Part shown: positions 22,469-27,108 of the stretch, one piece after another | How positions within the stretch are numbered: position 1 is the stretch's first letter | How the letters are laid out: each line of letters opens with the position of its first letter | Assembly (NCBI RefSeq): GCF_001514305.1 | Contig: NZ_KQ949088.1 | Coordinates: 1 to 64,000 of the forward strand | Length of the DNA: 64,000 nucleotides | Direction of reading: 5' to 3' | Source of the DNA: Streptomyces dysideae | GTDB taxonomy: Bacteria > Actinomycetota > Actinomycetes > Streptomycetales > Streptomycetaceae | Made by a program: the position numbers and the translations under genes | The notes under the pieces: generated by a model | Told to the model about the DNA's origin: nothing | Databases searched by the model: none | What the model saw: the letters and a program-made list of their open reading frames with translations, nothing else

Positions 22469-22918
22469 TCAGGCGTGGTTCTGGGGGCCCGTCATCTCCG
22501 TGACCCGGTGGGCCAGTTCGTCCAGCACGGCCGCGTCGTCGTCCGGGAACCCTTTCCCCTTCGGCGGCCAGATCGGGCCCATCGCGTCGCCGGGCCAGCG
22601 CGGCACCAGATGCACATGGGTGTGGAACACGGTCTGCGAGGCCACCGCGCCCGCCGAGTTGACGACGTTCAGACCCTCGGGCTCCAGGGCCGCGCGCAAC
22701 GCCCTGCCCACCACCAGCACCGCCCGCGTCAGCTTCTGCACGCCGGTCTCGTCCATCGCCCACAGGTCCGCCGAGTGCGTCCTGGGCACGACCAGCGTGT
22801 GCCCCCGGGTCGCGGGGGCCAGCGGGAAGAAGGCCAGGGTGTGCGCGTCGGCGTACACCACGCGCGCCCGGCTCGGGTCCGCGACGATGCCGCAGAAGGC
22901 GCAGGCCGCGTCGTCCAT
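22469..22918 (-). CDS. HIT-family hydrolase
   Basis: 149 aa. The histidine triad HTHVHLVPR (His99, His101, His103) is intact, with GHTLVVPRTHSADL and GLNVVNSAG typical of the Hint/Fhit-like branch that hydrolyses nucleoside phosphoramidates or dinucleoside polyphosphates. Cys6 and Cys9 (CAFC) suggest an N-terminal metal site. ATG 22918 has GAGGGAG upstream; ATG 22954 would add 12 residues. Located between, and opposite in direction to, the small membrane gene and the TIR gene. Confidence 0.9.
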   Translation of the reverse strand: MDDAACAFCGIVADPSRARVVYADAHTLAFFPLAPATRGHTLVVPRTHSADLWAMDETGVQKLTRAVLVVGRALRAALEPEGLNVVNSAGAVASQTVFHTHVHLVPRWPGDAMGPIWPPKGKGFPDDDAAVLDELAHRVTEMTGPQNHA

Positions 22919-23098
22919 GGGACCTATGCTCCCTCGTAGGGCTGGATCGGTCATGTTCAGCACGTCTCGCCCTCGCCTCTCTGATACGAACGCCGGCAAT
23001 GATCTCCGGCGCGGGAGACCGGGACGAGGGCGGGTGGGAACGGCGGCATGGGCGGCATCTTCATCAACTACCGCAGAGGCGAGCACGAGCACGTCGTG

Positions 23099-25355
23099 CA
23101 CAGGGTCGCTAACAGCGGACGGATTGGCTTGGGTTTCCTTGGTGTTGCTGTGATCTTTCCGGTCTCTTCGGGGCTCGTGCGGTTGCTGCGTGACCTTTCC
23201 GGGCGGAGCGCGTTGTGTAAGTGAGTTCGATGATCGGACAGCAGTCTTGAGTAGCTGGGCGGGGGTGACAGGGTGCGGCGGAAGGTCCAGTTGGGTGAGG
23301 GGGAGACGGGGCGGGTGGCGTGCGCGTCGGCGTCCGCGTTCCGTGGCCTGGATACCGTCACCGGCGAGGTCCTGGGTGCCGATGCGCTCAGTGAGCGGGT
23401 GGGCTGGCTCACGGCTTTGGTTGAGAGCATGTGTGCGGAGGTGACCGGCGCCCGCTGGAACCGCCCGGATCTGGCCCGGCTCGCTTCCGGGCGGGACCTG
23501 TCGGGGCAGCGGCTGCCGTCGCATGCGTGGATGGCGATGCGCATGCTGGGCTGGGCGGCGAGTGCCCCAGAGGGTGTGTACGTTCCCGACCGGGTGCGGC
23601 GGATCGCCGAGGAGCAGGCCGGGCGGGCGCTGCGTTCGGCCTGGTGGCGCACGCAGATCACCGATGCCGTGCTGGCGACCTGGCCCACCGGCCCGGACGC
23701 CGATCCGATCCGGCGTACCGGGGCCGAGTGGGAGGCGCTGCGGGCGGCGTGTCCGGACGGGCAGGCGGTGGCGGCCTCAATCCTGCGTGCCCGGACCCGG
23801 CAGGCCGCTGCTTTCCACGCAGCCCGTGGCCGGCTGCCCGCCGACATCTGTGAGCTGGAGGCGGCGCCGGGCGGCGGCCGTCAGGTGGTGCTGGCCGCCG
23901 CGGACAAGCAGCTGGCCACCCTGGCCCGCTGCGAGGACGACCCGGCCCGCTACGCGGTGCTGACCGTGCGCCTGCCGGTACGGCCCGACCCCCGCACCCG
24001 GGGTGACTGGCACCCCGTGGTGATCCGCTTCCGGCTACCCCCGACCATCCCGCTGACCGCCGCCCTGCACGCCCCGACCCTGCGCCTGCGCGGCGGACGC
24101 CTGTGCCTGGACGTCGCGCACACCACCGCCGTCCCCCAGGCCCGGCGGGACGGGCATGTGCGGGCGGTGGCCTTCGACTACGGGCTCAACACCCTCCTCA
24201 CCGGCGGAACGCTGACCCTGACCGGCGGGGTGCAGCCGCATGTGCTCACCGACGCCCGCCCCGTCTTCCTGCGCGTGGACGGGGTGCTGGCCAAGGTCGA
24301 CCGGCTGCGGATCCAGGCCGAACAGGTCTGGGCCAGGGCCGCCCACCTGCAGACCCTGACCGACGGCCATGCCGCGCGAGGGCGGCGCCCCGACCCGCTC
24401 ACGGCGGCGAAACTGGCGGTGCTGCGCACCGAGCATGCCCGCCTGGGCCGCAAGCGCGGGCGGCTGAACGAGCAGCTGGCCCAGACCGCCGCCCGCTTCA
24501 TGGTCGGCCACGCCCGCGCCGTAAGAGCGTCGGTGATCTACCTGGAGGACCTGCGGGACATGGAGGCCCGCGGCAAGGGCCGCACCCTGAACACCCGCCT
24601 CTCACAGTCCGTGCGCGGGCAGATCGTCACCCACACCCGCCACCAGGCCGCGAAATACGGGATCGCGGTGGTCATCGTTCCCGCCCGCGGCACCTCCCGG
24701 TACTGCCCCGCCTGCCTGACCGCCTTCCGCCACCGCGCCGCCCCCGACCGCACCACACCGGGCTGGAAATGGGCCATCTGCCCCAACGCCGCCTGCGGTT
24801 ACAGCGCGGACCGGGACGTCGCGGCCTGGCAGCGGATCGGCGCCCGCGGCCTGCGCCACCAGCACCTGACCGTCCTGGACCGGGCGAGCGACACCTACGT
24901 GATCCGCCGCACGGTCGAGGAGCTGGACCAACCGGTCCGGCACACCACCCAGCCCGGACCCGCCACCCCGGCCGAGCCGCAGCAGCAGCCTGCTTCTGCT
25001 GCGGACCGGACGAAGGCGGGGCCGACGAGAAACCGCCCTGTGCCCAGGAAGCGACGCAGGGTCCCCGCCCCACCCGGAACATCCGCAGCAGCGGGCCCGG
25101 GTGGAAAGCGTCCGGCGGGGCGGATGCCCCAGCCACCCACCCGTCGCACCCAGCGGCGGCGCAGGCGGCAGGCACCGCACACGATGAGCACCCCCACCCG
25201 GCACCAGCCACGCGGGGCCAGACTCGGCGCAGGCTTCCACCTGCACACCCACGCCACGCCACACCACACGGACGGCATGGGCGACAGCCGGAGTCTCTTT
25301 TCCACCGGGACCGGGCCGAAAACCCAGCCCCACGCAGGAAAACCTAAGCTCATCT
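23099..25355 (+). mobile_element. IS1341-type element (TnpB only), ~2.26 kb
   Basis: Bounds are inferred from the break in the TIR frame: left junction after ...GTCGTG, right junction before GAGACGCTG. The element carries one gene, tnpB, and no TnpA. No target duplication is needed to restore the host gene, as expected for the IS200/IS605 group. Exact ends are uncertain by a few bases because terminal hairpins were not clearly resolved. Confidence 0.75.
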
Positions 25356-25357
25356 GA
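23273..25357 (+). CDS. tnpB: TnpB-like RNA-guided RuvC nuclease with long C-terminal tail
   Basis: 694 aa from GTG 23273. The RuvC active site looks complete: Asp302 in AFDYGLN, Glu425 in VIYLEDLRDM and the DRD motif at 513-515 in CGYSADRDVAAW. A zinc ribbon is inserted (Cys478, Cys481, Cys503, Cys508). The family makes RNA-guided double-strand breaks at a site defined by the RNA from the element's right end. The N-terminal ~280 residues are diverged. After residue ~545 a 150-residue Pro/Arg/His-rich tail runs to the element's edge; it probably overlaps guide-RNA sequence and may not be structured protein. The stop codon sits on the junction. Confidence 0.85.
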   Translation: MRRKVQLGEGETGRVACASASAFRGLDTVTGEVLGADALSERVGWLTALVESMCAEVTGARWNRPDLARLASGRDLSGQRLPSHAWMAMRMLGWAASAPEGVYVPDRVRRIAEEQAGRALRSAWWRTQITDAVLATWPTGPDADPIRRTGAEWEALRAACPDGQAVAASILRARTRQAAAFHAARGRLPADICELEAAPGGGRQVVLAAADKQLATLARCEDDPARYAVLTVRLPVRPDPRTRGDWHPVVIRFRLPPTIPLTAALHAPTLRLRGGRLCLDVAHTTAVPQARRDGHVRAVAFDYGLNTLLTGGTLTLTGGVQPHVLTDARPVFLRVDGVLAKVDRLRIQAEQVWARAAHLQTLTDGHAARGRRPDPLTAAKLAVLRTEHARLGRKRGRLNEQLAQTAARFMVGHARAVRASVIYLEDLRDMEARGKGRTLNTRLSQSVRGQIVTHTRHQAAKYGIAVVIVPARGTSRYCPACLTAFRHRAAPDRTTPGWKWAICPNAACGYSADRDVAAWQRIGARGLRHQHLTVLDRASDTYVIRRTVEELDQPVRHTTQPGPATPAEPQQQPASAADRTKAGPTRNRPVPRKRRRVPAPPGTSAAAGPGGKRPAGRMPQPPTRRTQRRRRRQAPHTMSTPTRHQPRGARLGAGFHLHTHATPHHTDGMGDSRSLFSTGTGPKTQPHAGKPKLI
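25200..25355 (+). ncRNA. Candidate omega (guide) RNA scaffold at the right end of the TnpB element
   Basis: In TnpB systems the 3' end of the gene and the element's right end encode the guide RNA scaffold, with the guide taken from the flank. Here that would place the scaffold in about the last 150 bp and the guide from 25356 onward (GAGACGCTGTACGCG...). Assigned by position only; no RNA fold was computed. Confidence 0.35.
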
Positions 25358-26832
25358 GACGCTGTACGCGGACCTGAAAGGGCACTTCGGCGCGGACCAG
25401 GTGTTCCTCGACCGGCCGTCCATCGTGCCGGGGCAGCGCTACTCCGACGTGCTGCGGGAGCGCGTCGCCGACTGCGACGTCCTGCTCGTCGTCGTCCACC
25501 GGGGGTGGGTGGACGCGCGGGACGACGAGACCGGCGTACGGCGGCTGGAGGTGGCGGGCGACTGGGTCCGGCGCGAGATCGACCAGGCCCTGCACAGCGG
25601 CAAGACCGTCGTCCAGGTGCTGCTGGACGACGCCGAGCCGCCCAGGCCCGCGCAACTGCCGGAGCGGATCCGGGAGTTGGCGATCCGGAACGCCCAGGCG
25701 CTGCGGCAGGAGGCGTACGGCTCGGATCTCGCGGAGCTGATCGCCGTACTGGAAACGGACGTGTCCAGGACCTGGGAGCCGGTTCCGCCGCCACCGGCGC
25801 CCTACCGGCCGGGCCGGTGGCTGGGCGTCGTCACCGCGGTGCTGTCCTGCGCCGGGCTCGTCACGGTCCCCGCGTTGCCCCAGGACGACGGCTGGGCCCG
25901 CGCGGACGGCCTCCCCCTCACCCTCTACGCCGCCCTGTTCTCCTGCCTGCTGCTGTGCGCGCCGCTGATCGCGGTCGCCGTCGGCCGTCATCTGCTCCGG
26001 CGGCCCGTCGACGCCTGGGAGCGGGACCTGCACGCCGTCAAGCACCGGACCTACGTCCGGCAGACCTGGCCGATGGCCGCGGGGCTGGTGCTGATCGCGG
26101 TGTTCGGCGCGCTGTCGATGTGGGGCGACGAGGGCACGCAGGCGTCCCTGATCCTGCTGCTGGTCCTGGGGCTCGCCGTCGCCCGCTCGGGCGCCCTGCA
26201 CATCCGCCTCGAGCGGCGGGACGCCGACCTGTGGACCCGCTGGCCGCAGGGCCTGCCGGACCCGGTGACCCGGCCCGTGCTGCGCCGGGCGGTCGCACGG
26301 CTGGAACTCCGGCTGGCCGGGTTCCGGCCGCCGCTCTCGCGCGAGCAGCGGGAGAAGGCGAAGTGGGAGCTGGCCGGCCTGCGCGAGGCGCTCGGGCGGC
26401 TGTCGGGTGAGGCGCGGCGGTCGCGTGTGACGTGGCTGCGCCAGGACCACCCCTGGATGTTCGGCGGCTGTGTGCTGTGGCTGAGCCTCACCGCGGCGAC
26501 CGCCCTGGAGGCCGGCATCGCCTTCGGGGCGGCGGGACGAGGGACGCCGCGTGTCTACGCCGCACTGGTCGTCGTGGCGCTCATCGGCACCGCCCTCGCA
26601 CTGGCCACCATGGAACTCGGCCACCGCCACCAGCGCCGTATGCGCACCGACCTGGTGACAGAGGCCGGCGCGCGCGTCGCCGACCTGGCCGAGCGGGTCA
26701 CCGCCCTGAGCGCTCCCGCCCGCACCAAACTGTCCTCCCCCGCACCGCGCCCCGAGGAATACGCCGAGCCCGACTAGGCGCCGGTACCCCCGAAGGAGCA
26801 CTCTGGAAGCAGGTATTCCGGAGGTGATCGTC

Positions 26833-27108
26833 ATGATGCACACCGCAGTGGGATGGCATGTCGAGCTGGAGTTCAGGGAGGACGAGACACACACCCGGGC
26901 GGTCGCGATGGTGCGGTTGCCCGACGGCTCGGAGGTGAAGGCCCACGGGCACGCCACGCGCCACCACACCGACTCCAATCAGCCACGGGTCGGTGAGGAG
27001 ATAGCGGGCGCCCGGGCGCTGAACGAGCTCGCGATGACGCTGCTCACGAAGGCGCACGGGGAGATCGACTCGGCATCCGGACGGACGTCGCACCCGATCC
27101 ACGCCTGA
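26833..27108 (+). CDS. DUF1876 family protein
   Basis: 91 aa, starting at ATG 26833 with an excellent GGAGGTGAT at ideal spacing; in-frame GTG 26824 overlaps that site and is unlikely. WHVELEFREDETHTRAVAMVRLPDGSEVKAHGHATRH is the defining beta-hairpin of DUF1876, followed by a helix (EIAGARALNELAMTLL). Function unknown; related genes often accompany stress proteins in actinobacteria. It stands 55 bp after the disrupted TIR gene and converges on the serine hydrolase. Confidence 0.85.
   Translation: MMHTAVGWHVELEFREDETHTRAVAMVRLPDGSEVKAHGHATRHHTDSNQPRVGEEIAGARALNELAMTLLTKAHGEIDSASGRTSHPIHA

What the first reader, a model, noticed from the sequence alone, without database searches (positions are those of the whole stretch)
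23048..26777. TIR-domain membrane protein gene split by a TnpB-only element
The first 17 codons (MGGIFINYRRGEHEHVV) and the frame resuming at 25356 (ETLYADLKGHFGADQVF) fit as one TIR domain if 23099-25355 is removed, giving ~490 codons with no target duplication. This catches a mobile RuvC-nuclease element inside a probable defence gene, with the pre-insertion sequence readable at both edges. The event looks recent because both halves keep an open frame and strong codon bias.
Basis: partly seen in the sequence, partly recalled or inferred. Interest (0 to 1): 0.85.

Follow-up and report, generated by a model that had tools for sequence, protein, structure and literature searches.

The report
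TIR gene interrupted by TnpB-only transposon
In this Streptomyces genome a small mobile element carrying only a gene for a probable RNA-guided DNA-cutting enzyme has landed in, and cut in two, a gene with a TIR domain; uninterrupted versions in related bacteria show where it went in, which is a clean but fairly ordinary transposon insertion.

Summary
A 490-codon TIR-domain gene (23048-26777) is split by a 2257-bp element carrying one intact 694-aa TnpB gene. Two other copies in this genome and one in Micromonospora also have uninterrupted counterparts of matching length; at one of these sites 11 of 14 counterparts read AGGCT itself. Relatives with about 50% TnpB identity at four loci carry an IS607-type serine recombinase between similar ends, so this is a TnpB-only element of the IS607 lineage. 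Micromonospora TnpB-only copies still hold the start of tnpA; the window element shows no such remnant, and its genome has no close helper (best 36%), though the host of one close copy has 58-61% relatives. A right-end RNA is partly supported; guide and TAM are inferred. Defence function of the TIR gene is unproven. An ordinary insertion with a well-defined TnpB system.

The parts
23048..23104 (+). 5' fragment of the TIR gene (19 codons, MGGIFINYRRGEHEHVVHR), including the left half of the target site (CAC AGG)
   Evidence: L045 reads GTCGTGCACCGG|CTGTAC at this point; left flank maps without gap
25362..26777 (+). remaining 471 codons of the TIR gene plus stop, open throughout; first in-frame start GTG 25401
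   Evidence: TIR_2 match, no stops, 57-73% identity to the five closest alleles
23105..25361 (+). TnpB-only mobile element, 2257 bp, inserted in AGG^CT
   Evidence: ends shared by copies at other sites; uninterrupted counterparts at four sites
23102..23104 (+). AGG, left target half (candidate part of the TAM)
   Evidence: AGG in 22 of 23 placed left ends (10 of 11 in the window clade, where L083 reads GGG by extrapolation; 8 Micromonospora; 4 with tnpA); several were located with an AGG[GC]T search, which favours AGG
25362..25363 (+). CT, right target half
   Evidence: GACGCT ends 46 of 47 aligned right ends (L020 has GACACT); end positions were first chosen by a GACGCT search
23273..25357 (+). 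tnpB, 694 aa, GTG start, TGA stop; D302, E425, D515 and C478, C481, C503, C508 invariant in all 30 aligned sequences (window included)
   Evidence: the RuvC and zinc-finger roles of these residues are assigned by recall
25298..25342 (+). hairpin of the predicted right-end (omega) RNA: outer stem TTTTCC 25298-25303 with GGAAAA 25337-25342
   Evidence: other copies pair different letters at the corresponding place (GTTTCC/GGAAAC in the C29 copy, CGATCC/GGATCG, GAACCC/GGGTTC)
25364..25383 (+). predicted guide segment, read from the TIR gene beyond the right end (inferred by analogy with ISXfa1)
   Evidence: inference; besides this place only two others in the genome match within 3 mismatches, both with 3

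Best explanation
A 2257-bp TnpB-only transposon of the IS607 lineage inserted without duplication between AGG and CT, i.e. between codons 19 and 20, of a 490-codon TIR-domain gene, most likely inactivating it (the first strand of the TIR domain, by recall of the fold, is separated from the rest). Shown: insertion, ends, uninterrupted alleles of matching length, the AGG^CT junction, intact TnpB. Inferred: the element was moved by a serine recombinase acting in trans or now lost; TnpB binds an RNA made from the right end and reading into the TIR gene, recognises AGG (or AGGCT) as its motif, and would cut an uninterrupted identical allele so that repair copies the element back.
For: TIR gene: 10 of 392 genus genomes (own included) match at E <= 1e-20; of the 9 others, 8 alleles (L044-L051) could be compared at the junction and none is interrupted; L045 is gap-free there and L044, L046, L047, L048 and L049 have the same number of codons up to the junction; L045 has the HIT gene upstream as in the window (ORFs). 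C1 copy in the same genome: 14 of 14 examined counterparts (of 21 other genomes with a match) gap-free over a 60-62 bp join of which about 20 bp lie left of the junction, AGGCT itself in 11 of 14, up to 98% identity. C29 copy, in a gene read as LuxR-type: 12 of 14 examined gap-free, the gaps in the other two lying away from the junction. Micromonospora copy L011: 25 of 25 examined (of 86 genomes with a match, own included) show no gap. A serine-recombinase-like gene lies between an AGGCT left end and tnpB in L015, L017, L024 and L030. TnpB fold: AsCas12f 8dzj Z 15.1, TnpB-omegaRNA 8h1j Z 13.4, ISFba1 TnpB 8iaz Z 11.4. Right-end stem with compensating letters.
Against: No RNA, TAM or cleavage was measured. 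The letters AGGCT are seen in uninterrupted counterparts only at C1 (11 of 14) and C29 (1 of 14), in none of the 8 TIR alleles and none of the 25 Micromonospora alleles, where only the length and frame fit. Codon identity at the C-terminal part of tnpB is not raised over the rest, so overlap of an RNA scaffold with the ORF is not supported. Consensus folds of the right ends are weak (8 and 4 pairs). No Rfam match to RAGATH-18. The window clade's left end lacks the dinucleotide match expected for IS607. No close recombinase in the window's own genome (best 36%).
Confidence: 0.85

Rival explanations
1. One reading: the element is 23099-25355 and the gene originally read ...HVV-ETLYADL.
For: Same length and frame, so the ORF is restored equally.
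Against: GAGACGCT is shared by copies at unrelated sites, so GAGACG is element sequence; L045 reads VVHRLY; the C1 counterparts show AGG^CT.
Confidence: 0.02
2. A Y1-type IS200/IS605 element (insertion 3' of a short motif, right flank free).
For: TnpB-only elements are common among IS605 relatives (recall); the left flank motif AGG is nearly fixed.
Against: The right flank CT is fixed too, and the C1 counterparts show that CT belongs to the target; four relatives with similar ends carry a serine-recombinase-like gene. Y1 tnpA was not searched for in any genome.
Confidence: 0.05
3. A regulated, reversible switch: scarless excision restores the TIR gene under some condition.
For: Insertion is scarless and in frame; the downstream half is open.
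Against: No recombinase gene in the element and no close one found in the genome (one query); the element is at this site only in the window's genome among the 9 compared (window + 8 alleles).
Confidence: 0.04

Closest known systems
IS607 family (IS607, IS1535, ISXfa1, ISFba1)
   Same: Relatives at about 50% TnpB identity have a serine-recombinase-like tnpA and tnpB between similar ends; no target duplication; fixed bases on both flanks.
   Different: Window element has no tnpA; its site is AGG^CT, whereas GG is reported for IS607 (PMC6188088 and PMC10711439, passages); TnpB 694 aa against 387 aa for ISFba1 (PMC11061315, passage); no RAGATH-18 RNA found.
IS1341 group (TnpB-only elements)
   Same: Only tnpB between two ends, no recognisable tnpA remnant.
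   Different: Ends, site and relatives tie it to the IS607 lineage; longer than the 362-489 aa TnpBs listed for IS1341 elements of six species in PMC9956272 (passage).
Cas12f / TnpB RNA-guided nucleases
   Same: Invariant residues fitting the RuvC triad and zinc finger, overall fold.
   Different: Transposon setting; low-confidence C-terminal tail of about 145 residues that nevertheless has conserved stretches.

Membership tests
IS607 family (complete element) | serine recombinase tnpA upstream of tnpB | tested here: not met
   Window element has 168 bp before tnpB and no similarity there to tnpA DNA (L015, L017) or protein (L017); met in relatives L015, L017, L024, L030 (recognised by eye and recall, no profile search).
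IS607 family (complete element) | no target site duplication | tested here: met
IS607 family (complete element) | 2-bp identical overlap shared by left end, right end and target | tested here: not met
   Window clade: left AGG|GT, right G|CT, site AGGCT; only one G shared. The relatives with tnpA share GCT at both ends, so the feature is compatible there.
IS1341 group | TnpB only, without tnpA-derived sequence | tested here: met
   no match of the window's left region to the tnpA used; three Micromonospora copies and L018 do match, so they fail this test.
IS200/IS605 family | Y1 HUH transposase in the element or close relatives | not tested
   No Y1 search was run; four relatives have a serine-recombinase-like gene instead.
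TnpB RNA-guided nuclease | D-E-D RuvC triad and zinc finger | tested here: met
   D302, E425, D515, C478, C481, C503, C508 invariant in 30 sequences (roles by recall); TNB domain above cut-off; guided_TnpB below its cut-off (41.6 against 100)
TnpB RNA-guided nuclease | right-end guide RNA and TAM-dependent cleavage | not testable with these tools
   Only stem conservation could be examined.
RAGATH-18-associated IS607 TnpB | RAGATH-18 RNA next to tnpB | tested here: not met
   none among the 3 matches up to E = 10 in 22900-26900
Thoeris / TIR defence protein | TIR domain | tested here: met
   TIR_2 5e-11 in intact allele L045; window half 2.2e-6
Thoeris / TIR defence protein | match to a defence-system model at its curated cut-off, and partner genes | tested here: inconclusive
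   ThcB4 30 bits against 220 (window half); ThsB1 1.8e-8 over residues 4-72 (L045; PADLOC gives no cut-off); partners only looked for by eye

The most novel reading that the evidence does not exclude
The window clade is a TnpB-only lineage that has kept moving although its left end no longer matches its right end at the recombination dinucleotide: the left-end G after the first three bases is present at all 11 sites of the clade where the left end was placed, while the right flank is CT. It would then move by a route other than standard IS607 recombination, or by a helper that tolerates the mismatch or cuts elsewhere, with TnpB homing contributing.
Probability: 0.15. Interest if true: 0.6.

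Novelty: new member of a known kind. Interest (0 to 1): 0.38.

Why it matters
It gives four sites with uninterrupted counterparts, exact ends, a candidate target motif and a candidate guide for an unusually long TnpB. It also bears on the question, put in PMC9956272 (passage), whether TnpB-only elements are decayed IS605/IS607 copies or independent (that paper leans to independent): the three Micromonospora copies tested and L018 are visibly decayed (they retain the left end and/or the start of tnpA), whereas the window element shows no remnant. The loss of one TIR gene in one strain is itself ordinary.

Tried and rejected
RNA overlapping the ORF: codon identity at identical residues is 0.59 in residues 631-660 against 0.43-0.64 in the blocks up to residue 600, so no excess. 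Consensus folds of 29 and 16 right ends gave few pairs. The stem was instead examined per sequence: 45 of 47 could be scored (L021 and L034 not); nine have the exact TTTTCC/GGAAAA stem. In the window clade shuffles reached the observed pairing in at most 3% of trials, except L090, L092 and L093 (41-70%); in the CGATCC/GGATCG group in 2.5-6.5%; in most of the rest often (11.5% up to 100%), so the test is positive for the window's closest copies, suggestive for the second group and uninformative for the rest. MAFFT placed the stem out of register in A4. Self-targeting: the 20-base guide matches its own locus and two places with 3 mismatches; the reversed control pattern matches twice. L052 was left out of the junction count because it aligns only over the TIR part. 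Rows L016 (end not found; contig ends nearby) and L091 (same place as L041) were dropped before alignment A2. In the window clade the left end could not be placed for L084, L085, L092 and L093; L083 was placed by extrapolation and reads GGG, not AGG; L089 was placed by motif search only. Other left ends that only the motif search gave (L023, L025, L032, L096, L097 and others) were not counted. dN/dS failed with a saturation error for 11 of 15 pairs. Fold searches list many Cas12 families; absence of a family there is not evidence. Literature searches: 2 papers hold TnpB, IS607 and Streptomyces together and neither listing names this element; none holds TnpB, IS1341 and actinobacteria; ISfinder could not be consulted.

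Full report
Observation. The window holds ATG 23048 MGGIFINYRRGEHEHVV..., a 694-aa TnpB-like ORF 23273-25357, and an open frame to 26777. The downstream frame matches TIR_2 (2.2e-6) and the TnpB ORF matches the Cas12f1-like TNB domain (5.3e-10) and, below its cut-off, NCBIfam guided_TnpB.

Ends. The element DNA gave 11 matches in its own genome, the window itself and several short pieces included; among them are a full-length copy on C1 (80%) and an internally deleted copy on C29 (86%, two pieces). The protein found 34 loci in the genome collection, and 39 of 392 genus genomes matched the DNA at E <= 1e-20, many only in part. Aligned copies share sequence from AGG (23102) on the left to GACGCT (ending 25363) on the right and then diverge.

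Empty sites. Of 392 genus genomes, 10 (own included) hold the TIR gene at E <= 1e-20. Eight alleles (L044-L051) were aligned and none is interrupted; the ninth, L052, aligns only over the TIR part. In L045 the left flank up to AGG and the right flank from CT map to adjacent bases without gap. L044, L046, L047, L048 and L049 have the same number of codons up to the junction, although the nucleotide aligner set 2 bases apart; L050 and L051 are more distant, and L051 has a codon more. L045 encodes 490 aa, as do the window's two pieces together (1473 nt), and has the HIT-type gene upstream as in the window (ORFs; family by recall). For the C1 copy the joined flanks align gap-free to 14 of 14 examined counterparts, AGGCT being present in 11; only about 20 bp left of the junction are alignable, because the region upstream diverges. 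For the C29 copy 12 of 14 examined are gap-free; the gaps in L160 and L165 lie away from the junction, where the interrupted gene has 7 bases fewer; AGGCT is seen in 1 of the 14. For the Micromonospora copy in a glycosidase-like gene, 25 of 25 examined show no gap, and none reads AGGCT (mostly AGGCG, AGGCC or GGGCG), so the T is not proved there. The C1 site fixes the insertion between AGG and CT; at the others length and frame agree with it.

Lineage. In L015, L017, L024 and L030 a protein of about 200 aa with an N-terminal helix-turn-helix and a serine-recombinase body lies between an AGGCTCA left end and tnpB; it is recognised as IS607 TnpA by reading and recall, no profile search was run on it. 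L018 carries an internally deleted tnpA, and the Micromonospora copies L011, L021 and L027 retain the left end and the start of tnpA, so those are deletion derivatives. The window's left region shows no such remnant. Seven Micromonospora sp. CB01531 copies have both ends in view without a full tnpA (L011, L012, L013, L019, L021, L027, L034); five more records and a second copy in L013 are cut and cannot be scored. The helper search in 14 genomes (E <= 1e-6) found two intact TnpA of 77% identity in that genome (G392), whose left ends are 87-88% identical to that of L011 over about 60 bp; 61% and 58% matches in G393, the host of the close copy L009 (S. flaveus); only a 36% match in the window's genome; and none in 6 of the 14, five of which hold window-clade copies and one (G097, with G395) only a right-end piece.

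The unexplained point. IS607 recombines over an identical dinucleotide, GG for IS607 itself (PMC6188088 and PMC10711439, passages read). Relatives with tnpA share GCT at both ends. The window clade has AGG|GT on the left and G|CT on the right: only one base is shared. The G after the first three left-end bases is present in all 11 clade copies whose left end was placed, at different sites (10 AGG, L083 GGG). A mismatched 2-bp exchange would be expected to give both letters after replication; this is reasoning, not a test.

TnpB and RNA. Thirty aligned sequences keep D302, E425, D515 and four cysteines. The AlphaFold model has mean pLDDT 70.5 with a low-confidence tail from about 548; best matches are Cas12f and TnpB structures (sequence profile against the PDB). 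The right end has an outer stem TTTTCC/GGAAAA in the window; the C29 copy has GTTTCC/GGAAAC, a two-sided change, and other groups have CGATCC/GGATCG and GAACCC/GGGTTC (controls under Tried and rejected). The consensus fold shows 3 of 4 pairs with two-sided changes in the window-clade set but is weak in the larger set (8 pairs, 2 with two-sided changes). By analogy with ISXfa1, where the fixed right-flanking nucleotide belongs to the RNA scaffold and GGG is the depleted motif, and with IS607 TnpBs of TAM AGGAG or GAGGG (PMC10711439, PMC11061315, passages), the candidate TAM is AGG or AGGCT and the guide starts at 25362-25364. This is inference.

TIR gene. The intact allele matches TIR_2 at 5e-11. 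The window half shows no stop or frameshift, GC3 0.943 (0.852-0.962 in seven alleles) and dN/dS 0.13 to L045; 4 of 15 pairs gave a value, the rest a saturation error. A defence role is possible but not supported beyond the TIR domain.

Verdict.

Noticed in passing
own genome C1:543775-548050 (L094): A second full-length copy (80%) sits directly after what reads as the ATG of a conserved gene (ATG AGG^CTG CGG), separating its start codon from the body.
   Followed up: yes
own genome C29:84583-87924 (L095): A copy with about 900 bp deleted inside tnpB, inserted in a LuxR-type regulator gene (by eye) that also has 7 bases fewer than its counterparts L160 and L165 near the site.
   Followed up: partly
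G392 (Micromonospora sp. CB01531), loci L011-L013, L019, L021, L027, L033, L034, L038-L040, L042: Twelve records with 12 different right flanks, plus a second copy inside L013; seven have both ends and no full tnpA, the others are cut; two intact serine TnpA genes lie elsewhere in the genome: a likely trans-mobilised family.
   Followed up: partly
own genome C1:137778-138332 (L105): A different serine recombinase of the same kind (36% identity), followed by what by eye looks like the start of another TnpB-like ORF.
   Followed up: no
L018, 330 bp before 5001: An internally shortened tnpA, an intermediate between complete and TnpB-only elements.
   Followed up: partly
L041 1121-2512: A truncated copy whose tnpB frame has no stop before the right end (1624) and runs on into the flanking DNA.
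   Followed up: no
L010 near 1095 and 3357: The stretch GCTGCACGGATAGCC occurs close outside the left end and again at the right end of the copy; natural tandem repeat or trace of an event.
   Followed up: no
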